The notes under the pieces are model-generated. The model worked only from the letters and a program-made list of their open reading frames with translations. It did not search any database and was not told where the DNA came from. 64,000 nucleotides of DNA from Myxococcales bacterium (GTDB lineage: Bacteria; Myxococcota; Myxococcia; Myxococcales; Myxococcaceae), in the NCBI GenBank assembly GCA_020846875.1, contig JADLDB010000056.1:1-64000 (forward strand), read 5' to 3'. The first letter of the stretch is position 1, and the number at the start of each line of letters is the position of its first letter. The position numbers and the translations under genes are program-made. This document shows positions 41,709 through 56,427 of the stretch, piece by piece.

Positions 41709-43778
41709 GTGTCGGCCCCGGGCGCACCTCTTGAGTCGTTGAAATCCGGGCCGGAGCGGGTCAGAACCGTGGTCTGGATGTCCGACACCGCGCGGAAGAT
41801 CCTGGGGGGCGCTCTGGCGGTCGCGTTCATCATCGCGGCGGCGCTCGTGTCTTCTCAGGTGGGGGCATCGGCGCGGGCGCGGGCCGAGGCCGAGGCGCGA
41901 ACGGCCGTCGAGGAGAAGCTCAGCCCGGCGGCGGATCGGGTCGGCGCGGCAAAGACGGAGCTGGAGACGATCGCCCGCAGCGGCGTGCACAAGCTCAAGG
42001 CCTCCCTCACCCGGCTGGACGAGGCGGCGTTGAACGAGCCCGGAGGCCCGGAGGAGCTGGCGAGGACGATCGACGACATCCTCAAGGACGAGGACTGGTG
42101 GGCGGCCTTCCGCTCCAGCGGACAGAGCGTGCTGTTCCGGCAGGGCGCGCACGTCGGGGAGCTGTCGGAGGCCCTGCGCCCGGTGCTCGCGTCCCTCGCC
42201 GGGCGCGCAGAGACGGGGGGCGTGGTGTCCGAGCTGTTGTCCCTGGCGGGTGTCCCCTCCGTCATCGTGGCCACCCACCTCGATCTGCCCACCAAGGTGG
42301 CGCAGCGGCTGGTGTTGGTCATGTACCGGCCGCTCGATCAGGCGACGGTGACGCGCCAGGCCACCGAGCTGGGTGTCGCGCTGGCGCTCAGCGGCGCGGC
42401 GGCGACCGTGTCCGGCGGGGTGCCGGCGGCTCGGCCCTGGCTGGACGGCTTCCTCGCGGAAGGGACACGCTTCTCTTCCACGTGCTGCGCGACGAGGGAT
42501 CTGGTGGCGGGCCTGAGGCTGGTGGTGGCGAAGGATCCAACCAGCTTCTTGAGCGCGGGGGAGGCGGCGGCCGGGCGCGCGCGGGTGATCAGCTTCGCCG
42601 TGGCCCTGGTGCTGGCCGCCGTGGCCCTCTTCGTCACCTTCCGCAAGCCCACCGGCGAGGTCAGCGAGCGGCTGCTGCGGGAGACGGCGGCGGCGCTCGA
42701 GGCCCAGCGGCAGGAGCTGCAGCGGCTCTCGCAGCACATCTCCAACCCGAACGTCGCGCTCAACCCGGCTGGGGCTACCGGCCAGGGGCAGGCGCAGGCG
42801 GACCTGGGACTGGCCGCCACCAGCGCCTCGGTGGCCCAGTCGCGGTACGAGGAGCTGGCCCCGCTGGGCCAGGGCGGGATGGCGAAGGTGTTCCTGGCCA
42901 TGGTGCGCGGCGCCGAGGGCTTCCGCCGGCTCTTCGTGGTGAAGCGGCTGCGGCCCGAGCTGTCGGGCACCGAGGAGCTGGTCAACCAGTTCATCGACGA
43001 GGCGCGGCTGGGCGCGTCGCTGGTGCACTCCAACGTGGTGCCGGTGCTGGACTTCGGCCGCGACGCAGACGGCTACTACATGGCGCTCGAGTACATCCTC
43101 GGGCGCGACGTGACCGCGGTGGTGGAGGCCTCGGTGAAGAAGCGCGGGCGGGCGCTGGAGGTGCCGGTGGTGCTGGCCCTCGCTCAGGAAGCGCTCAAGG
43201 CGCTGTCCTACGCGCACACCAAGACGGACGACACGGGCAGGCCGCTGGGGCTGGTGCACCGCGACGTGTCGCCCAACAACCTCATGCTGACCGCGCGCGG
43301 TGAGGTGAAGCTGCTCGACTTCGGGATCGTCAAGGGCGAGCACCGCCTGACGAAGACGCAGACCGGCGTGGTGAAGGGCAACCTGTTCTTCATGTCGCCC
43401 GAGCAGGCCAAGGGCCTGACGCTGGACGCGCGCAGCGATCTCTTCTCCCTGGGCCTGGTCCTCTTCTACGCCGCCACCGGAGACACGCTGTACAAGGGCG
43501 GCACCAGCTATGAGCTGCTCACCCGCGCCGCCCTGGGGCTCTCGGAGGCCGACCTCGCCCGGGTGAGGGCGCTACCCGCCGCCGTGTCGGGCCTCTTGCT
43601 CAAGGTGCTCCAGTTCGATCCTGCCGGGCGCTTCGCCGACGCCGACGACTTCGCGCGCGCCGTGGGCGCCACCGGGCAGACGGCGAGCGCCGCGGACCTG
43701 AAGGTGTTGATGGAGGCGCTGCTGAAGGACGAGCTGGCCGAGGAGCAGGCCCGCTTCGCACCGCGGGAGGGCGCGTGA
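41709..43778 (+). CDS. Transmembrane Ser/Thr kinase with N-terminal extracytoplasmic sensor
   Basis: A 689-residue protein with the unusual order sensor-then-kinase. Membrane helix 1 (about 30-50) and helix 2 (about 291-313) flank a 240-residue periplasmic domain of CHASE-like layout; a coiled segment follows; the kinase spans about 378-640 with LGQGGMAKVFLA, VVKRLRPE, HRDVSPNN, DFGIVK and MSPEQ. Ser replaces the usual Lys after HRDV, as in many myxobacterial kinases. GTG 41709 is chosen because AGAGGAGGGGG lies just upstream; ATG 41778 is an alternative without a ribosome site. Its stop overlaps the next gene (GTGA). It may sense the envelope state and control the three exported proteins encoded after it; this is inference. 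Confidence 0.92.
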   Translation: MSAPGAPLESLKSGPERVRTVVWMSDTARKILGGALAVAFIIAAALVSSQVGASARARAEAEARTAVEEKLSPAADRVGAAKTELETIARSGVHKLKASLTRLDEAALNEPGGPEELARTIDDILKDEDWWAAFRSSGQSVLFRQGAHVGELSEALRPVLASLAGRAETGGVVSELLSLAGVPSVIVATHLDLPTKVAQRLVLVMYRPLDQATVTRQATELGVALALSGAAATVSGGVPAARPWLDGFLAEGTRFSSTCCATRDLVAGLRLVVAKDPTSFLSAGEAAAGRARVISFAVALVLAAVALFVTFRKPTGEVSERLLRETAAALEAQRQELQRLSQHISNPNVALNPAGATGQGQAQADLGLAATSASVAQSRYEELAPLGQGGMAKVFLAMVRGAEGFRRLFVVKRLRPELSGTEELVNQFIDEARLGASLVHSNVVPVLDFGRDADGYYMALEYILGRDVTAVVEASVKKRGRALEVPVVLALAQEALKALSYAHTKTDDTGRPLGLVHRDVSPNNLMLTARGEVKLLDFGIVKGEHRLTKTQTGVVKGNLFFMSPEQAKGLTLDARSDLFSLGLVLFYAATGDTLYKGGTSYELLTRAALGLSEADLARVRALPAAVSGLLLKVLQFDPAGRFADADDFARAVGATGQTASAADLKVLMEALLKDELAEEQARFAPREGA

Positions 43779-47267: not shown

Positions 47268-47328
47268 AGCCTCTAGGGTGGGGGGGAAGGCGAGCGAAGT
47301 GTGGGCGGCGGCGTTACCTTCAACGCCG

Positions 47329-47895
47329 ATGAACCACGACTTCCACCGCGCCCTGCTGGCCGGAAGGCGGGACTTCGAGGCCGCGCGCTACCACGCGGCG
47401 CACGAGGCCTGGGAGGCGCACTGGCGGCACGCGCACGGAGACGAGCGGCTGGTGCTGCAGGCGCTGGTGTTGTGGGCGGCGGCGCTGCACCACCACCAGC
47501 ACGGGCGCGAGCTGGGCGCGCACCGGCTCCTCTTACGCGCGCTCGAGCGGCTCACGCGGGCGCGGGAAGGCCTGCGCGACGTCGACGTCGACGCGCTGCG
47601 CGGGGCCCTCGTGGAGAGCCTGGAGGCGACGAAGGAGCCGTTTCGAGCCGACGTCCGGCCGCGGTGGTTCGGCGCCGGGGCGACAGCGCAGGAAGCCACG
47701 GCGCTGGCGCTGGAGCACCCTTCGTCCTGTCCCTACTGCGGCGAGGCGGTGCTGGTGTCGGTGACGGTGGAGGATGCGCTGGGGGCGGCCTACGTCGAGG
47801 ACTGCCCGGTGTGCTGCCGCCCGTGGCAGGTGCAGGTGCAAGAGCACGACGGCGTGGTGCGGGTGGCGCTGGAGCGCGACGACGCGCAGCGCTGA
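47329..47895 (+). CDS. DUF309-domain protein fused to a CPxCG zinc-ribbon domain
   Basis: A 188-residue cytoplasmic protein. Residues 1-100 match the DUF309 all-helical family (FHRALLAGRRDFEAARYHAAHEAWEAHWR, ALVLWAAALHHHQHG), whose conserved His residues suggest a metal or active site. Residues about 130-170 form a CPxCG-type ribbon (SCPYCGEAVLVSV, DCPVCCRPWQVQV) with four main Cys plus an extra one, giving CCR where CG is more usual. The ATG at 47329 is preceded at 8 bases by TACCTT, and no ribosome site is visible. Two families often found as separate small proteins are joined here. Function is unknown. Confidence 0.85.
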   Translation: MNHDFHRALLAGRRDFEAARYHAAHEAWEAHWRHAHGDERLVLQALVLWAAALHHHQHGRELGAHRLLLRALERLTRAREGLRDVDVDALRGALVESLEATKEPFRADVRPRWFGAGATAQEATALALEHPSSCPYCGEAVLVSVTVEDALGAAYVEDCPVCCRPWQVQVQEHDGVVRVALERDDAQR

Positions 47896-48008: not shown

Positions 48009-48848
48009 ATGGAGGGGTTCCTTCACAACATCTTGTCCTTCCCGACGGTGCCGCTGACGGTGGCCCTGGGGGTGGTCGTCCTCTACTGGCTCTTCGCGCT
48101 GGTGACGGGGGCGGTGTTCGACGCGGCGGGCGGCGCGGCGGACGCGATCGCCGGCGGGGTGAAGGGCGCGGGAGACGCGGCGGCGGGCGCGTTGAAGGGG
48201 GCGGGCGCCGCGGCGGCGGGCGCGCTGAAGGGGGCGGGCGACGCGGTGGCGGGCGCGGTGAAGGGCGTGGGCGACGCGGTGGCGGGCGCGGCAGACGCGG
48301 CGGGCGACGCGGTGGCCGACGTGCACGACGCGGGCTTCTTGGCGCTGCTGGGCATCGGCCGCATCCCCATCACCGTCACCGCGAGCGCCACCGTCCTCAC
48401 CGCGTGGACCTTGTCGGCGCTGGGCACGGCGCTGCTGCACCCGGACACGACGCTGGTGAAGGTGGGGCTGCTGCTCGCGGCGCTCGTCGCCGGCTTCTTC
48501 GCGACCGCGCTCCTCCTCCGGCCCTTCGGGAAGGCGATGGCGCAGGCCAAGCCCACCCGGCGGCGCGACGTGCTGGGCCAGGTGTGCACCATCACCAGCG
48601 GGAAGGTGGACGCCGGCTTCGGCACGGCGGTGGTGGACGACGGCGGGGCCGGCATCAACGTGATGGTGGTGTGCGGCAGGACCAACGCCCTCAAGAAGGG
48701 CGATCGCGCGCTGCTGGTGGACTTCGATCGCGCGAAGGACACGTACGAGGTGGAGCCGGTCGACTGGCTGCTGCCTGAAGAGTTGAAGGCGCTGGAAGAT
48801 CCAGCGCGCGCGGAGACGGTGCTCTCGTCCCGCGTGCGGCGCCGGTAG
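48009..48848 (+). CDS. Membrane OB-fold protein (YqiJ/NfeD-like), flotillin partner
   Basis: A 279-residue inner-membrane protein. Helix 1 (about 10-35, VPLTVALGVVVLYWLFALVTG) is followed by a segment of 11-residue repeats (GAGDAAAGALK type, about residues 45-100), then two or more helices (ITVTASATVLTAWTLSALG; VGLLLAALVAGFFATALLL) and a C-terminal OB-like domain (DVLGQVCTITSGKVDAGFGTAVV, KKGDRALLVDFDRAKDTYEVEPVDWL). This layout is that of YqiJ/NfeD-type partners of flotillins, and a flotillin gene follows after 49 bases. ATG 48009 is the best start; earlier GTG codons are in frame. It probably anchors or helps assemble the flotillin scaffold. Confidence 0.86.
   Translation: MEGFLHNILSFPTVPLTVALGVVVLYWLFALVTGAVFDAAGGAADAIAGGVKGAGDAAAGALKGAGAAAAGALKGAGDAVAGAVKGVGDAVAGAADAAGDAVADVHDAGFLALLGIGRIPITVTASATVLTAWTLSALGTALLHPDTTLVKVGLLLAALVAGFFATALLLRPFGKAMAQAKPTRRRDVLGQVCTITSGKVDAGFGTAVVDDGGAGINVMVVCGRTNALKKGDRALLVDFDRAKDTYEVEPVDWLLPEELKALEDPARAETVLSSRVRRR
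48141..48327 (+). repeat. Tandem 33-base repeats encoding Ala/Gly 11-mers
   Basis: About five degenerate copies of a 33-base unit encode the 11-residue motif KGAGDAxAGAx. The period matches an 11-residue amphipathic-helix repeat of the type seen in membrane-surface or apolipoprotein-like segments. Confidence 0.7.
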
Positions 48849-48897
48849 CACGAGAGCCTGGAAGTTCGCCGTACCCGCACTGGGAGGAATACACGTC

Positions 48898-50955
48898 ATG
48901 TCACCGGACATCTTGTTCACCGTCGGCGTCGCCATCGGCCTCGGCTTCTTTCTGTTGATCGGCTTCGGCGTCGCGCTCGCGCGCTTCTACAAGCAGGTCG
49001 CCCAGGGCCAGGTGCTGATCGTCAACACCATGAAGAACGAGCCCAAAGTGGCCTTCACCGGCTCGGTGGTGCTGCCGATCATCCACCGCGCCGAGACGAT
49101 GGACATCTCGCTGAAGACCATCGAAATTGACCGCCGCGGGAAGCAGGGGTTGATCTGCGCCGACAACATTCGCGCGGACATCAAGGTGAGCTTCTTCGTC
49201 CGGGTGAACAAGACGGTGGAGGACGTGCTCAAGGTGGCCCAGTCGGTCGGCTGCCAGCGCGCGTCGGACCTGCGCACCTTGCAGGAGCTCTTCGAGGCGA
49301 AGTTCTCCGAGGGCCTCAAGACGGTCGGCAAGCGGCTCAACTTCGAGGATCTCTACAAGGAGCGCGACCTCTTCAAGGATCAGATCGTCCAGGTGATCGG
49401 CAAGGATCTGAACGGCTACAACCTCGAGGACGCGGCGATCGACTACCTGGAGCAGACGCCGATCGAGATGCTGGACAAGGAGAACATTCTCGACGCGCAG
49501 GGGATCCGGAAGATCACCGAGCTGACCACCCAGCAGTCGGTGCTGACCAACGAGTTCCGGCAGACCGAGCGCAAGCAGATCACCAAGCAGAACGTGGAGG
49601 CCGACGAGGCGGTGTTCGCGCTCGAGCGCCAGCGCGCCGAGGCCGCCGCCAAGCAGAAGCGGGAGATCGAGACCATCCAGGCGAAGGAGTGGGCGGAGGC
49701 CGAGAAGGTGAAGCAGGAGGAGCACCTGAAGGCCGAGCTGGCGCGGATCAAGGCGGAGGAGGAGCAGCAGATCAACGAGCAGAACAAGCAGCGCCAGGTG
49801 CAGGTGGCCGAGAAGAACCGCGAGCGCGTGGTGGGGATCGAGACCGAGCGGGTGGCGAAGGATCGCGCACTGGAGGCGATCAACCGGGAGCGGGAGGTCG
49901 AGCTCAACCGGATCGGCAAGGAGAAGGCGCTGGAGGTGGAGCGCAAGGCGATCGCCGACGTGATCTCCACCCGCATCTCGGTGGAGAAGAAGGTCGCCAC
50001 CGAGGAAGAGAACATCAAGCAGTTGCGGCTGGTCGCTGAGGCCCAGCGCAAGAAGGAGGCGACGATCATCACCGCCGAGGCCACCGCGCAGCAGTCGGTG
50101 ATCGAGCGCGTGAAGTCCGCCGAGGCGTCGGAGGAGGTGGCCAAGCACGAGGCGAAGGTGAAGCTGATCGCCGTCGACGCCGAGCTGGAGGCCGCCGACA
50201 AGCACGCCCGCGCCAGGATGCGCGAGGCGGAAGGCACCCAGGCCGAGGTGGCCGCCGAAGGGCTGGCGAAGGCGCGGGTGCTGGAGGCCACCGCGCTGGC
50301 CCAGGAGAAGCAGGGCATGGCCAACGTGCGGGTGAAGGAGGCCGACGCGGTGGCGATCGAGAAGCAGGGCGCGGCCGAGGCCAACGTCCTGAAGCTCCGG
50401 ATGCTCGCGGAGGCGGAGGGCAGCCAGCAAAAGGGCGTGGCCGAAGGCGAGGCGATCCGCGCCAGGGTGCAGGCCGAGGCGGTGGGCGTGCAGGAGAAGC
50501 TGCTCGCAGAGGCGAGGGGGCTCGCCGAGAAGGCCGCGGCCATGGCCAAGCTGCAGGGCGCCACCAAGGAGCACGAGGAGTTCCGCCTGCGGCTGGAGAA
50601 GGACAAGCAGGTCGAGCTGGAGTCGCTGCACGTGCGCAAGGACATCGCGTCGAGCCAGGCCGAGGTGCTGGCCCGCGCGCTCTCCAACGCGAAGTTCAAC
50701 ATCGTCGGCGGCGACGGGCAGTTCTTCGATCAGTTCGTCAAGGCGGTGTCGCTGTCCCACAGCTTCGACGGCGCGGTGACCAACGGCGACTCGCTGCGCA
50801 CGCTGCTCAAGCCCTACCTGGAGGGGAACCGCAGCCTGCCGGAGGATCTGAAGGAGATCCTGTCCCGGCCTGGGCTGACCCAGGACGCGCAGAACCTGGC
50901 GGTGGCCGCGGCCCTGTCGAAGATGGTCAAGAGCGAAGGCAGCCCGAAGAAGTAG
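48898..50955 (+). CDS. Flotillin family protein (YqiK-like, SPFH domain)
   Basis: Membrane-scaffold protein, 685 residues. An N-terminal helix (about 4-28) anchors it; the SPFH domain follows (RFYKQVAQGQVLIVNTM, FTGSVVLPIIHRAETMDISLKTIEIDR, DLNGYNLEDAAIDYLEQTPIEML); a coiled-coil of about 300 residues (230-560) is rich in Glu, Ala and Lys and in AEAE-type repeats characteristic of flotillins; a helical tail completes it. A strong GGGAGGA ribosome site precedes ATG 48898. Flotillins organise fluid membrane domains. The upstream OB-fold gene and downstream giant ATPase form an operon with it (gaps of 49 and 18 bases). Confidence 0.95.
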   Translation: MSPDILFTVGVAIGLGFFLLIGFGVALARFYKQVAQGQVLIVNTMKNEPKVAFTGSVVLPIIHRAETMDISLKTIEIDRRGKQGLICADNIRADIKVSFFVRVNKTVEDVLKVAQSVGCQRASDLRTLQELFEAKFSEGLKTVGKRLNFEDLYKERDLFKDQIVQVIGKDLNGYNLEDAAIDYLEQTPIEMLDKENILDAQGIRKITELTTQQSVLTNEFRQTERKQITKQNVEADEAVFALERQRAEAAAKQKREIETIQAKEWAEAEKVKQEEHLKAELARIKAEEEQQINEQNKQRQVQVAEKNRERVVGIETERVAKDRALEAINREREVELNRIGKEKALEVERKAIADVISTRISVEKKVATEEENIKQLRLVAEAQRKKEATIITAEATAQQSVIERVKSAEASEEVAKHEAKVKLIAVDAELEAADKHARARMREAEGTQAEVAAEGLAKARVLEATALAQEKQGMANVRVKEADAVAIEKQGAAEANVLKLRMLAEAEGSQQKGVAEGEAIRARVQAEAVGVQEKLLAEARGLAEKAAAMAKLQGATKEHEEFRLRLEKDKQVELESLHVRKDIASSQAEVLARALSNAKFNIVGGDGQFFDQFVKAVSLSHSFDGAVTNGDSLRTLLKPYLEGNRSLPEDLKEILSRPGLTQDAQNLAVAAALSKMVKSEGSPKK

Positions 50956-50973
50956 CCGGCGGGGGAGGCCTCC

Positions 50974-53900
50974 ATGTCGACCGAAGCCGACCCGGCGCTC
51001 GCCGGCGGGAGCTACGAAGTCATCCGCGAGCGGCTGCTGGCCACCGCGAAGGCGCTGTCGGAGCGCGCCGAGGCGCTGAACGCGCGGCGGAGGCAGGAGT
51101 TCGGCGGGCAGGAGCTGTCGGTGCTGGGCAGCGATCGCGTGCGCACCGAGAACAACTGCGTGCCGCGCGACGCCGTGCCGGTGGGCCCCTTCCTGCTCCT
51201 GGGCTTCAACGTCTTCATGGGGCTCAAGCAGGAGCGGGCCGTTTCCGACGTGTTCAGCCTGCACCGCTGCGAGCGGGGGGAGGACGGCGCCTTCGACTTC
51301 TCCGAGGTGCCGAAGAGCGAGGCCGGCGGCTTCCTCGAGGATCGCCGCTTCGTGAAGGACTTCGAGGATCTCTTCAAGTTCTACAAGGACGCCCGGCTCA
51401 ATCAGCTGATCAAGACGGAGGCGCGGCTCCTGGCGATCTTCCGGACCGGCCTCACCGAGCGCGACGTGAAGGTGCTGCGCTTTGGCGTCGACGTCAGCGG
51501 GCGCGTCACCTACCTCGACAACCGCGGCGAAGGCGACTGGGCGGCGCCTCCCACCCACGACTTCGAGTGGAGGCGCGCCGGTCACGAGGAGTACGTCACC
51601 GGCCGGCACCCGCACGTGAACATCCTCGACGAGGTGTTCATCGAGACGCTGGGCGGCGATCTCACCGTGAAGGTGGAGAACAACACCGAGACGGGGCAGG
51701 GCATCTACGCCGAGCCGGTGGAGGAGGCGAGCCAGTCGCTGGACGACGCCGAGTTCCACTACGCGAAGGTGGGCGCGCTGATCCTGTTGAAGGTGCTGCC
51801 CTTCCGGGAGAAGGCGTACCGCTACCTCGTCTTCAACACCCGCACCCGCCGGGTGGTGCGCGCCGACGCCATCGGCCAGTCCTGCGTCACCCTGCCCGAG
51901 GAGCAGGGGATCACCTTCCCCGGCGGCTACGTGCTGCAGACGGGCGAGGCCAAGCTGTTCGATCAAGACACGCGGGAGTTCGTCTTCCATCGAGCGCTCA
52001 AGAGCCCCAACGGGGAAGACGTGCTGTTCCTCTTCTTCGCGCGGGAGTCGGGCGCCTACGTGCTCTTCCCGTACAACCTGGTGCGCAAGCAGGTGGCCAA
52101 CCCGCTCCACGCCCACGGCTACGCGACCTTCCCCGACGGGCGCCTGGTGCTGCTCAACGCGCAGGGCAGCGAGCCGTCGCGGGTGCACCCGGTGCAGGTG
52201 TGGCAGACGCCCTTCGTGTCGGCGGAGCACGCCGCGGCGGCGCCGGCCCCGAGGACCGCCCTGGGCAAGCTGGGGAACGCGGAGCTGGTGCGGGGGATCA
52301 GCGAGGTGCTGACGCTCAGGCGCCTCGCCGAGTCGGACTCGCCCACCCGCCGCGGCTACGAGGCGCTGATCGCCGCCTGCACCCGCACCGTCGATCAGTT
52401 CCACTGGCTGGGCCACGCGGAGGTGGGGCTGCTGCCCCAGGTGCTGGAGCTCAAGAAGAGCGCCGAGCTGATCATCGACGAGTTCGAGAAGGTGCTGGTG
52501 ATGCGGCGCCAGGCCGCCGAGGAGCTGACCCGCGCCAGCACGTCCCAGGCCGAGCTGCTGCAGCAGGCTTCCCCCGGGGGGCTCACCAGCACCGGCGACT
52601 TCATGGCCGCCCTGGGGGCCCTGCGGAAGCAGCTCGGGCAGCTGATCACCCTGCAGGAGGTCCGCTACGTCGACCTCGCCCGGGTGGAGGCGATGGAGGC
52701 CGAGGTGAAAACGGCCTTCGACGAGGTGAGCCAGAGCTGCGTGCAGTTCCTGCTCACCCCCGCGGCCTTCGCGCCGCTGCACCAGGGCGTCAAGGAGGTG
52801 GACGCGAGGTGCCAGGCGGTGGGGAAGACGACCGAGCTTGCGCCGCTGGTGGAGGAGGTGGAGCGCCTGAGCCAGGGCCTCTCGCTCCTGGGAGAGATCG
52901 TCGGCGGCCTGGAGGCGGGAGATCCGACCCAGAAGGCGAAGATCCTCGAGGACATCTCCGAGGTGTTCGCGGGGCTCAATCGCGTGCGCGCCACGGTGCT
53001 GGCGAAGCGGAAGGAGTTGCTGGGCAGCGAGAAGCGCGCCGAGTTCGGCAGCCAGTTCAAGCTTTTCGCCCAGTCGATCGACGCGGCCCTGTCGCTCGCC
53101 GACTCCCCAGAGAAGTGTGACGAGCAGCTCACCCGCCTCACCCTGCAGCTCGAGGAGCTCGAGAGCCGCTTCTCTGACTTCGACGAGTTCGCGGCCGACC
53201 TCACCGCGCGGCGCGAGGATCTGCTGGAGGCCTTCGGCAAGCGCAAGCAGTTGCTGGTGGACGAGCGGCAGCGGCGCGCCCAGCAGCTCTTCGACGCGGG
53301 GGAGCGGATCCTCCAGTCGGTGGCCCGGCGCTCGGCCGGCTTCGCCGCAGAGGACGAGCTGAACTCGTACTTCGCGGCCGATCCGATGCTGCAGAAGCTC
53401 AAGCAACTGGTCGCGCAGTTGCTGGAGCTCAAGGACAGCGTGAAGGCCGACGAGCTGGACTCACGGCTGAAGACGGCGAAGCAGGACGCGCTGCGCGGCC
53501 TGCGGGATCGCAAGGATCTCTTCGAGGGCGGCCAGGCGGTGGTGAGGCTGGGCAGCTACCGCTTCAACGTCAACACCCAGCCGCTCGACGCCACGGTGAT
53601 CCCTCGCGACGAAGGGCTGTTCCTCCACCTCACCGGGAGCGACTACGCGCAGCGCCTGGCGGATCCAGACATCGACAGCGCCCGCGCGTACTGGGCGCAG
53701 ACGCTGCCGTCGGAGTCGCCGGAGGTGTACCGGGCCGAGTACCTGGCGGCGTCGATCCTCCGGGCGGCCGAGGCGGGGCAGGGCGGGCTGTCGGTGGCGA
53801 AGCTGCACGAGGCCGGGCGGGGGCCGCAGGGCCTCTGGGCGCTCACGCGAGACTGGGCGCAGGCGCGCTACGACGACGGCCTGGAGCGGGGCGTGCACGA

Positions 53901-56427
53901 CGCCGACGCGGCGGCGATCCTCCAGCACCTGGTGGCGCTGCGGGAAGACTCGGGGCTGTTGCGCTTCCCCGCCTGGCCCCGCGCCCTGGGCACGCTCTTC
54001 TGGGCCGGCTGGCGGGACGAGGCGCAGAAGACGGCCTGGCACCGGCGCGCGCTGTCCTCGGGGCGGCTGAGGGCCCGGTATGCCAGCCGCACCGGCCTGG
54101 ACGCGGTGGCGGGGGAGGTGCTGCCGGCGCTGCGCGCCTTCGCGGAGGCGAGCCGCTTCGAGGTGACCGCCTCGGAGCTGGCGGTGGCAGCGCGCTACCT
54201 GTCGGAGGAGCTGGCCGAGGCGCCGCTGCGCTTCGTGGTGTCGCGGCACGCGGTGGCGCTCAGGGACGATCTGCTGTCCACTCTGGAGGCTGCGGGCCAG
54301 CGGCTCGTCTTCGAGGACGATCTGCGGGCGCTGGACGCAGACATCGCGGCCCGCTTCCGCCTGGTGCGCGCCTGGCTGGAAGCGCACTCCGAGGGGGCCG
54401 GCGATCGCACGGAGGTCTTCACGCGATCCGTCGCGGAGGCCGCCGCGCTGCTGGCCGTGGACGAAGCCGCGCTGTCCCGGGAGGTGTCGAGCGCCGTCCT
54501 CGAGGTCCAGGTGAAGGGCCTGCTGGGCCAGCACCCGCGCATCCAGGGGCAGACGCTCAGCCTGCGGCTCGACGAGTTCGAGCAGCGCATGACCTGGTTT
54601 GTCGAGGAGCGGACGCCCGCCTTCCAGCGCTACCGGACCAAGGTGCGCGGGCTGCTGGACACCGAGCGAGGTCGCCTGCGGCTGGACGAGCTCAAGCCGA
54701 AGGTGCTGTCCAGCTTCGTGCGCAACCGGCTCATCGACGAGGTGTACCTGCCGCTGATCGGCGCCAACCTGGCCAAGCAGCTCGGCGTGGCCGGTGACAC
54801 CAAGCGGACCGATCGCATGGGGCTGTTGCTGCTCGTCTCCCCGCCCGGCTACGGGAAGACGACGTTGATGGAGTACGTCGCCGCACGGCTGGGGCTCACT
54901 TTCGTGAAGGTGAACGGGCCGGCGCTGGGGCACGAGGTGGTCAGCGTGGATCCCGGCGAGGCGCCCAACGCCACCGCGCGCCAGGAGGTGGAGCGGATCA
55001 ACTTTGCCTTCGAGCTGGGCAACAACGTCATGCTGTACCTGGACGACATTCAGCACACCAACCCGGAGCTCTTGCAGAAGTTCATCAGCCTCTGCGACGC
55101 CACCCGCAGGGTGGAGGGCGTGTGGAACGGCCGCTCGCGTACCTACGATCTGCGCGGGAAGAAGTTCTGCGTGGTGATGGCGGGCAACCCCTACACCGAG
55201 GCGGGCGAGCGCTTCCGGATCCCCGACATGCTGGCCAACCGCGCCGACACCTACAACCTGGGCGACATCCTCGGGGGGAAGCAGGAGCTGTTCGCCTCGA
55301 GCTACCTGGAGAACGCGCTCACGTCGAACCCGGTGACGGCGCCGCTGCTGGCCCGGCCGTCGGGTGACCTGCGCCGGATCCTCGACATGGCCGCCGGTGC
55401 CACCGTGTCGGCCAACGAGCTGGAGCACGGCTACTCGGCGGCGGAGCTCACGGAGATCGTCGAGATCTTGAAGCGCTTCCTCTACGTGCAGCGCACGCTG
55501 CTCAAGGTCAACCAGGAGTACATCAAGAGCGCGTCGCAGGACGATCGCTTCCGCACCGAGCCGCCCTTCAAGCTGCAGGGCAGCTACCGGAACATGAACA
55601 AGCTGGCGGAGAAGATCGTCGCCGCGATGACCGACGCTGAGCTCGAGGCGCTGGTGGACGCCCACTACGCCAGCGAGTCGCAGACGCTCACCACCGCGGC
55701 GGAGGCCAACCTGCTCAAGCTGGCGGAGCTGCGGGGACGTCAGGCGCCGGAGCAGAAGGCGCGGTGGGAGGAGCTCAAGCGCGGCTTCAAGCGGGTGCAG
55801 GTGCAGGGGGGAGCGGACGACGATCCGGTGGTGCGGGTGACCGGCAGCATCGCCTCGCTGGGCGAGGAGCTGGGCCAGCTCAAGGACGTGGTGCTGGAGG
55901 CGGCGAAGAAGCCCCTTCCTCCACCGCCCGCTCCGGAGCCGCTGGGCCCGCGCCTCGAGAAGCTGACCGAAGCGGTGATGCTGGGCGCGAAGGCGCCGCG
56001 CCCGTCGGATGTGGGGCCGAAGCTGGACGCGATCGCCCAGGTGCTGGGTCAGGTGGGGCGCGCCCTGGTGCAGCCTCCGGCGCCGCGCGACGAGCTGGGC
56101 CCCTCCCTGGAGCGGATGACCCAGGCCCTGGCGGCGATCGCCAACCGGCCGGTGGCGTCGGCGGCCCTGCCGGATCTCACGCCGGTGCTCGAGAGGCTCG
56201 CCGCGCAGGTCCCGGCCCCGGCAGAGAGCGGCCTGCGCGAGGACGTCGCCCATCAGATGATGCTGATCCAGGAGCGGCTGCAGGAGCTGGCGGCCAACGC
56301 CCGCGCGGCGCTGCAGGGCGATCCCGACGGCGCGGTGAAGGCCACCCTGGTGTGGCAGCACGCGAAGGAGGCGATCGAGCTGCTCAAGGCCCTGCCGTCG
56401 CGGAGCCGCAAGGCGAAGTCGCGCTGA
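50974..56427 (+). CDS. Giant AAA ATPase with DUF3686-type N-terminus (annotated elsewhere as DNA-repair ATPase)
   Basis: An 1817-residue cytoplasmic protein with no signal or membrane span. The N-terminal 430 residues resemble the DUF3686 region of proteins often labelled DNA-repair ATPase (FLLLGFNVFMGLKQERAVSDVF, GEGDWAAPPTHDFEW, GRHPHVNILDEVFIETLGGDLTVK). Coiled-coil regions (about 430-850) and a mostly helical middle follow. The AAA module has Walker A PPGYGKTTL (K1295), Walker B VMLYLDDIQH (D1357, D1358) and GNPYTEAGERFRIPDMLANRADTYNLGDILGG. A Pro/Glu-rich helical tail includes repeated RLE/LEE segments. It is the last gene of the OB-fold-flotillin operon. DNA repair is only a label; the flotillin link suggests a membrane-associated remodelling machine instead. 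Confidence 0.88.
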   Translation: MSTEADPALAGGSYEVIRERLLATAKALSERAEALNARRRQEFGGQELSVLGSDRVRTENNCVPRDAVPVGPFLLLGFNVFMGLKQERAVSDVFSLHRCERGEDGAFDFSEVPKSEAGGFLEDRRFVKDFEDLFKFYKDARLNQLIKTEARLLAIFRTGLTERDVKVLRFGVDVSGRVTYLDNRGEGDWAAPPTHDFEWRRAGHEEYVTGRHPHVNILDEVFIETLGGDLTVKVENNTETGQGIYAEPVEEASQSLDDAEFHYAKVGALILLKVLPFREKAYRYLVFNTRTRRVVRADAIGQSCVTLPEEQGITFPGGYVLQTGEAKLFDQDTREFVFHRALKSPNGEDVLFLFFARESGAYVLFPYNLVRKQVANPLHAHGYATFPDGRLVLLNAQGSEPSRVHPVQVWQTPFVSAEHAAAAPAPRTALGKLGNAELVRGISEVLTLRRLAESDSPTRRGYEALIAACTRTVDQFHWLGHAEVGLLPQVLELKKSAELIIDEFEKVLVMRRQAAEELTRASTSQAELLQQASPGGLTSTGDFMAALGALRKQLGQLITLQEVRYVDLARVEAMEAEVKTAFDEVSQSCVQFLLTPAAFAPLHQGVKEVDARCQAVGKTTELAPLVEEVERLSQGLSLLGEIVGGLEAGDPTQKAKILEDISEVFAGLNRVRATVLAKRKELLGSEKRAEFGSQFKLFAQSIDAALSLADSPEKCDEQLTRLTLQLEELESRFSDFDEFAADLTARREDLLEAFGKRKQLLVDERQRRAQQLFDAGERILQSVARRSAGFAAEDELNSYFAADPMLQKLKQLVAQLLELKDSVKADELDSRLKTAKQDALRGLRDRKDLFEGGQAVVRLGSYRFNVNTQPLDATVIPRDEGLFLHLTGSDYAQRLADPDIDSARAYWAQTLPSESPEVYRAEYLAASILRAAEAGQGGLSVAKLHEAGRGPQGLWALTRDWAQARYDDGLERGVHDADAAAILQHLVALREDSGLLRFPAWPRALGTLFWAGWRDEAQKTAWHRRALSSGRLRARYASRTGLDAVAGEVLPALRAFAEASRFEVTASELAVAARYLSEELAEAPLRFVVSRHAVALRDDLLSTLEAAGQRLVFEDDLRALDADIAARFRLVRAWLEAHSEGAGDRTEVFTRSVAEAAALLAVDEAALSREVSSAVLEVQVKGLLGQHPRIQGQTLSLRLDEFEQRMTWFVEERTPAFQRYRTKVRGLLDTERGRLRLDELKPKVLSSFVRNRLIDEVYLPLIGANLAKQLGVAGDTKRTDRMGLLLLVSPPGYGKTTLMEYVAARLGLTFVKVNGPALGHEVVSVDPGEAPNATARQEVERINFAFELGNNVMLYLDDIQHTNPELLQKFISLCDATRRVEGVWNGRSRTYDLRGKKFCVVMAGNPYTEAGERFRIPDMLANRADTYNLGDILGGKQELFASSYLENALTSNPVTAPLLARPSGDLRRILDMAAGATVSANELEHGYSAAELTEIVEILKRFLYVQRTLLKVNQEYIKSASQDDRFRTEPPFKLQGSYRNMNKLAEKIVAAMTDAELEALVDAHYASESQTLTTAAEANLLKLAELRGRQAPEQKARWEELKRGFKRVQVQGGADDDPVVRVTGSIASLGEELGQLKDVVLEAAKKPLPPPPAPEPLGPRLEKLTEAVMLGAKAPRPSDVGPKLDAIAQVLGQVGRALVQPPAPRDELGPSLERMTQALAAIANRPVASAALPDLTPVLERLAAQVPAPAESGLREDVAHQMMLIQERLQELAANARAALQGDPDGAVKATLVWQHAKEAIELLKALPSRSRKAKSR

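What the first reader, a model, noticed from the sequence alone, without database searches (positions are those of the whole stretch)
48009..56427. OB-fold membrane protein, flotillin and a 1817-residue AAA ATPase in one tight operon
Seen: three co-oriented genes with gaps of 49 and 18 bases; the first pair has the YqiJ/YqiK (NfeD-flotillin) layout and the third is a DUF3686-type AAA protein with intact Walker A (K1295) and Walker B (D1357/D1358). Known: NfeD/OB proteins partner flotillins in membrane microdomains. Inference: the ATPase is the motor of a flotillin-scaffolded membrane remodelling or stress system, not a DNA-repair enzyme as homologues are often labelled. This is the strongest candidate for a poorly described system here.
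Basis: partly seen in the sequence, partly recalled or inferred. Interest (0 to 1): 0.75.

Follow-up and report, generated by a model that had tools for sequence, protein, structure and literature searches.

The report
Flotillin–AAA ATPase envelope-stress operon, already described
Three neighbouring genes encode a small membrane protein, a flotillin-like scaffold and a giant ATP-driven motor; the same trio sits together in bacteria of several phyla and probably maintains membrane protein complexes, but the association was published in 2024, so this is a well-preserved member of a known, little-tested system.

Summary
In detail: three co-oriented genes (48009-48848, 48898-50955, 50974-56427; gaps 49 and 18 bases) encode a YqiJ-like membrane protein, a YqiK/flotillin-type SPFH protein and a 1817-residue DUF3686 AAA+ ATPase with intact, invariant Walker motifs. 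The adjacency is not chance. In the phylum, 86 of 93 DUF3686 genes follow this SPFH gene directly; three exceptions are contig breaks and four belong to one family where the ATPase has moved but the SPFH gene persists. Of 80 ATPase loci from several phyla, 71 have all three genes, and the protein trees agree (r = 0.95). No repair gene recurs nearby; PspA and a CesT/Tir chaperone do, in about 25 loci. The ATPase is modelled as beta-propeller, coiled coil and a MoxR-type (NorQ/CbbQ-like) AAA+ module, so a protein-remodelling motor on a flotillin scaffold is likelier than a repair enzyme. However, the trio was described in 2024 (PMC11237479), and an operon that probably carries it, bacABCDEF, was studied in Pseudomonas aeruginosa (PMC10948618). 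Added here: the coupling is quantified, PspA was not found in 5 of 18 trio genomes outside Myxococcota, and the motor resembles MoxR. Function remains untested.

The parts
48009..48848 (+). Gene 1: YqiJ/YuaF-like membrane protein (279 aa), two clear hydrophobic stretches (residues 7-41 and 146-174), Gly/Ala-rich repeat between them, putative OB domain at the C-terminus (about residues 185-250)
   Evidence: OB fold itself not tested by structure
48898..50955 (+). Gene 2: flotillin-type SPFH protein (685 aa): N-terminal membrane segment (residues 1-31), SPFH domain, long coiled coil, C-terminal HEEFR-containing region
50974..56427 (+). Gene 3: DUF3686/DUF7902 AAA+ ATPase (1817 aa)
51106..52212 (+). 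Beta-propeller domain of gene 3 (residues 45-413)
   Evidence: AlphaFold2 model, mean pLDDT 87.5 for residues 1-1190; structure matches over this range are WD40/beta-propellers
52276..53523 (+). Long helical/coiled-coil region of gene 3 (residues 435-850), contains DUF7902
54700..55740 (+). AAA+ module of gene 3 (residues 1243-1589): Walker A G1292-T1297, Walker B D1357/D1358, sensor-1 N1405, candidate arginine finger R1423
   Evidence: NorQ/CbbQ (MoxR) are the best structural matches

Best explanation
This is the abbreviated (PspA-less) form of the flotillin-YqiJ-AAA+ envelope-maintenance operon. Shown: three genes in conserved order, an intact AAA+ site, a beta-propeller and coiled coil on the ATPase (models), coupled inheritance with one SPFH subtype, and recurrent PspA/CesT-Tir neighbours in other bacteria. 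Inferred: the SPFH protein, anchored in the inner membrane and helped by the YqiJ-like protein, forms an oligomeric scaffold; the ATPase docks on its cytoplasmic face through its propeller/coiled-coil arm and, as a hexameric MoxR-type remodeller, extracts, assembles or disassembles membrane-associated protein complexes under envelope stress. PspA, where present, is a further client or effector rather than a required part.
For: Adjacency 86/93 in the phylum, exceptions being 3 contig breaks and one family; 71/80 loci across phyla have the trio. Two SPFH genes without an ATPase in the genome (G194 in the phylum, G316 in the gammaproteobacterial sample) simply end at a contig edge. Tree distances of ATPase and SPFH correlate r = 0.948, permutation maximum 0.131. 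In the family with a split operon the OB-SPFH pair stays together in the two genomes inspected and the ATPase is retained elsewhere. CesT/Tir and PspA upstream in 26 and 25 loci, rhomboid nearby (mostly downstream) in 12. AAA+ core best matches NorQ and CbbQ, Z about 17, 241-251 residues, rmsd 3.3-3.5; NorQ acts on a membrane enzyme (own knowledge). Propeller matches. Published description of the same association (PMC11237479).
Against: No physical interaction, ATPase activity or localisation has been tested. Tree agreement can come from co-transfer and shared taxonomy. A shared AAA+ fold does not fix the substrate. SPFH mutants of P. aeruginosa, including paFlo3 of the bac operon, show only slight phenotypes (PMC13086221). 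One myxobacterial family (f25, four genomes) and locus L116 (Labilithrix) separate the ATPase from the SPFH gene.
Confidence: 0.7

Rival explanations
1. The ATPase is a DNA-repair enzyme, as databases label it, and its position beside flotillin is incidental.
For: Pfam describes DUF3686 as 'ATPase involved in DNA repair' and public records carry the product name 'DNA repair ATPase'; weak RuvB similarity of the AAA module.
Against: RuvB similarity covers about 50 residues around Walker A, far below the RuvB cut-offs; the best fold matches are MoxR ATPases; no repair gene recurs in 80 neighbourhoods; constant flotillin partner.
Confidence: 0.07
2. The trio is only a satellite of the PspA stress response and works solely through PspA encoded in the operon or elsewhere in the genome (suggestion of PMC11237479).
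For: PspA and CesT/Tir are upstream in about 25 of 80 loci; the window genome has a PspA_IM30 protein on another contig.
Against: PF04012 finds no PspA in 5 of 18 trio genomes: a Micromonospora, two Stenotrophomonas, a Xanthomonas and a planctomycete. Draft gaps or very divergent PspA could explain some of these.
Confidence: 0.17
3. The trio is an anti-phage or inter-bacterial conflict module.
For: Patchy distribution in Gammaproteobacteria (4 of 229 genomes), presence on some plasmids, weak PADLOC hits.
Against: PADLOC matches are marginal (E above 4e-4) and fit coiled coil and P-loop only; common across genera of the window's family, which suggests a stable chromosomal trait; no match in 50,697 phage records.
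Confidence: 0.06

Closest known systems
CesT/Tir-PspA / band-7-flotillin / YqiJ / AAA+ (propeller, coiled coil) operons of the PSP comparative survey (PMC11237479)
   Same: Same three protein types in one operon; the survey also notes abbreviated operons without PspA
   Different: The window copy has no PspA or CesT/Tir gene in the operon; the survey's main text does not mention myxobacteria or rhomboid, and calls the ATPase only 'novel AAA+'
bacABCDEF of Pseudomonas aeruginosa (PMC10948618; SPFH gene = paFlo3, PMC13086221)
   Same: CesT/Tir-PspA-NfeD-type-SPFH order plus two further co-transcribed genes; P. composti, which the 2026 paper lists as carrying paFlo3, has CesT/Tir-PspA-OB-SPFH-DUF3686-rhomboid
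   Different: That bacE is the DUF3686 ATPase was not checked by sequence here; the window operon lacks counterparts of bacA and bacB
E. coli YqiJ-YqiK
   Same: Membrane OB-type protein plus flotillin; YqiK 26% identical over residues 3-419, YqiJ by profile
   Different: No ATPase follows yqiK in E. coli K-12
MoxR AAA+ ATPases NorQ and CbbQ
   Same: Closest AAA+ fold by Z and Foldseek rank
   Different: Those are small proteins working with VWA partners; this one is 1817 residues with a propeller and coiled coil, and no VWA partner was noted
HflK/HflC-FtsH
   Same: SPFH scaffold paired with an AAA+ machine at the membrane (working analogy)
   Different: FtsH is a membrane-bound protease; this ATPase has no predicted membrane segment and no protease domain was found

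Membership tests
[quoted passage not shown]
   YqiK alignment, Band_7 in relatives, N-terminal membrane segment
Flotillin-YqiJ-AAA+ (PSP-associated) operon of PMC11237479 | AAA+ ATPase fused to coiled coil and beta-propeller | tested here: met
Flotillin-YqiJ-AAA+ (PSP-associated) operon of PMC11237479 | YqiJ/YuaF-type 3TM OB protein | tested here: inconclusive
   Profile alignment with YqiJ E 4e-7, but no Pfam YqiJ_OB hit; only two hydrophobic stretches pass the threshold in a simple scan
Flotillin-YqiJ-AAA+ (PSP-associated) operon of PMC11237479 | CesT/Tir-PspA dyad in the operon (full form only; the survey also describes abbreviated operons without it) | tested here: not met
   Not in the window operon; the one PspA_IM30 gene lies on another contig. 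So it is filed as the abbreviated form, not the full form
DUF3686 (PF12458) | Score over the curated cut-off | tested here: met
   640.7 bits against 25
MoxR AAA+ ATPases | Best structural match to MoxR clade members | tested here: met
   NorQ/CbbQ rank first, Z 15-17; resemblance of fold, not proof of membership
MoxR AAA+ ATPases | Partner with a VWA domain | not tested
   No VWA gene was noted among recurrent neighbours, but no dedicated search was made
RuvB / DNA-repair helicases | RuvB equivalog score | tested here: not met
   24.4 bits against 282, 22.9 against 299

The most novel reading that the evidence does not exclude
The trio is a stand-alone, PspA-independent machine: a dedicated flotillin subtype obligately paired with a giant MoxR-type propeller ATPase, a further kind of SPFH-AAA+ pairing beside HflKC-FtsH and prohibitin-m-AAA.
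Probability: 0.3. Interest if true: 0.65.

Novelty: new member of a known kind. Interest (0 to 1): 0.42.

Why it matters
Bacterial flotillins have unclear functions and weak mutant phenotypes. A flotillin subtype that almost always travels with one giant remodelling ATPase, over several phyla, gives a concrete partner and a testable activity, and argues against the widespread 'DNA repair ATPase' label.

Tried and rejected
DNA repair role: no recurrent repair neighbour in 80 loci. Defence role: only marginal PADLOC hits and no phage relatives. Pfam YqiJ_OB for gene 1: no hit in three tries; PDB profile searches with genes 1 and 2 found nothing useful. Literature searches for DUF3686 and for 'DNA repair ATPase' with flotillin returned no paper. 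Strong SPFH matches apparently lacking an ATPase (G194, G316) turned out to end at contig edges; G143, G145, G231 and G415 carry only distant, YqiK-like SPFH genes (about 150-170 bits).

Full report
Observation. The window carries three + strand genes at 48009-48848, 48898-50955 and 50974-56427, separated by 49 and 18 bases. Gene 3 scores 640.7 bits against DUF3686 and also matches DUF7902 and AAA. Its Walker A lysine (K1295), Walker B aspartates (D1357, D1358), sensor-1 asparagine (N1405) and a candidate arginine finger (R1423) are invariant in 81 aligned ATPases. Gene 2 has no Pfam hit of its own but aligns with E. coli YqiK (26% identity over residues 3-419, E 5e-36; profile E 1e-27), and two relatives hit Band_7. 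Gene 1 is related to E. coli YqiJ by profile (E 4e-7), though the Pfam YqiJ_OB model does not reach it, so the OB fold remains likely rather than shown.

Conservation of the arrangement. In 195 genomes of the phylum, DUF3686 occurs in 93 and the SPFH family of gene 2 in 96. From the coordinates, 86 of the 93 ATPase genes directly follow the SPFH gene; three others sit at contig ends and four belong to one family (f25) in which the ATPase lies on another contig. In the two f25 genomes inspected, the membrane-protein and SPFH genes are still adjacent. In 80 loci fetched by ATPase similarity (Myxococcota, Pseudomonadota, Actinomycetota, Planctomycetota), 71 have all three genes, six of the other nine are cut by the contig start, L060 and L127 lack a detected gene 1, and only L116 lacks both partners nearby. 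In a few of the 71 other genes lie between the three (L059, L061, L085, L099). Plasmid copies from Pseudomonas, Streptomyces, Deinococcus and Hymenobacter also have the trio in order. In a gammaproteobacterial sample only 4 of 229 genomes have the ATPase and the same 4 have the SPFH gene beside it. The 80 loci were chosen as the best matches to the query, so they are not a random sample; the phylum and class samples are less biased.

Coupling. Tree distances correlate at 0.948 for ATPase and SPFH, 0.898 for ATPase and membrane protein and 0.864 for SPFH and membrane protein, against permutation maxima of 0.09-0.13; 44 of 68 splits are shared by the ATPase and SPFH trees. This shows joint inheritance; part of it follows from shared taxonomy. 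The SPFH subtype carries a HEE[F/Y]R motif near its C-terminus in 69 of 75 copies; the E. coli YqiK sequence lacks it.

Neighbours. The main families that recur beside the trio across loci are a CesT/Tir-type YjfI protein (26 loci), PspA (25) and a rhomboid protease (12). Apart from the Hymenobacter plasmid, PspA and YjfI were found in the operon only in Gammaproteobacteria and Burkholderiales (taxonomy read from the record titles). No DNA-repair gene recurs beyond close relatives: one DHH/RecJ-like gene recurs at a distance in six Pseudomonas-type loci, 5-6 kb beyond the ATPase. The window genome has one PspA_IM30 protein, on another contig. Of 18 trio genomes from other groups, five had no PspA match at all: a Micromonospora, two Stenotrophomonas, a Xanthomonas and a planctomycete. 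Their completeness is not stated, so this is suggestive only. On pQBR103 the trio stands at the end of a run of genes with YjfI, PspA, rhomboid, DUF2491, DUF350, DUF1190 and a glutathionylspermidine-synthase-like gene, which joins the two operon types that the 2024 survey describes as separate groups.

Domain structure of the ATPase. A model of residues 1-1190 (mean pLDDT 87.5) shows a beta-rich region at 49-411, long helices at 435-850 and a helical domain at 920-1165. The beta region matches beta-propellers (Z up to 10.5, about 160-220 residues). A model of residues 1150-1817 (mean pLDDT 78.2) has an AAA+ core whose best matches are CbbQ and NorQ, both MoxR-type (Z 17.2 and 17.2, 251 and 241 residues, rmsd 3.3-3.4), followed by dynein and midasin AAA modules. 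MoxR ATPases remodel or activate partner protein complexes (own knowledge). No membrane segment is predicted in the ATPase by a simple hydropathy scan, whereas genes 1 and 2 have them.

Most likely function. The SPFH protein and its membrane partner would form a scaffold on the inner membrane; the ATPase would be recruited to it and remodel membrane-associated protein complexes, probably in response to envelope stress. The gene arrangement and motifs are shown and the domains are modelled; recruitment, hexamer formation and substrate are inferred. The DNA-repair label finds no support here beyond weak RuvB/P-loop similarity.

Prior knowledge. [quoted passage not shown] The bac operon of P. aeruginosa (bacA CesT/Tir, bacB PspA, bacC NfeD-type, bacD SPFH, then bacE and bacF) is co-transcribed, and in a bacA mutant the other five proteins rise 6- to 13-fold; the mutant is affected in biofilm formation and rhamnolipid secretion (PMC10948618; NfeD and SPFH identities from PMC13086221). 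Deleting its SPFH gene, paFlo3, reduced biofilm by about 20% (PMC13086221). P. composti, listed there as a paFlo3 carrier, has the six-gene order with DUF3686 fifth and rhomboid sixth (L072), so bacE is probably the same ATPase, but this was not checked by sequence.

Verdict. The finding is real and its reading largely sensible, but the system is not undescribed. The additions made here are the quantified coupling, the split-operon family, the apparent independence from PspA in some genomes, and the MoxR-like assignment of the motor.

Noticed in passing
L132 (plasmid pQBR103) 2001-15205: Trio at the end of a long PspA/polyamine-type gene run (YjfI, PspA, rhomboid, DUF2491, DUF350, DUF1190, glutathionylspermidine synthase-like), joining two operon types described separately in the literature.
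   Followed up: partly
12 loci among L067-L130, e.g. L072:15205-15753: A rhomboid protease gene lies near the trio in 12 gammaproteobacterial loci, mostly directly downstream of the ATPase; the PSP survey's main text does not mention rhomboid.
   Followed up: partly
L050, L051, L144, L145 (family f25 genomes): ATPase and OB-SPFH pair are on different contigs, a natural split of the operon.
   Followed up: yes
window 47278-47895: Gene just upstream of the trio combines DUF309 and a Cys-rich CPXCG domain in one 205-residue protein; 113 bases separate it from gene 1.
   Followed up: no
window 41709-43778: Large protein with a C-terminal serine/threonine kinase domain (residues 380-642), upstream of the trio.
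   Followed up: no
window 48120-48330: Gly/Ala-rich degenerate repeat (GAGDAAAGALKGAG...) in gene 1, of variable length among relatives (longer in L048, shorter in L037).
   Followed up: no
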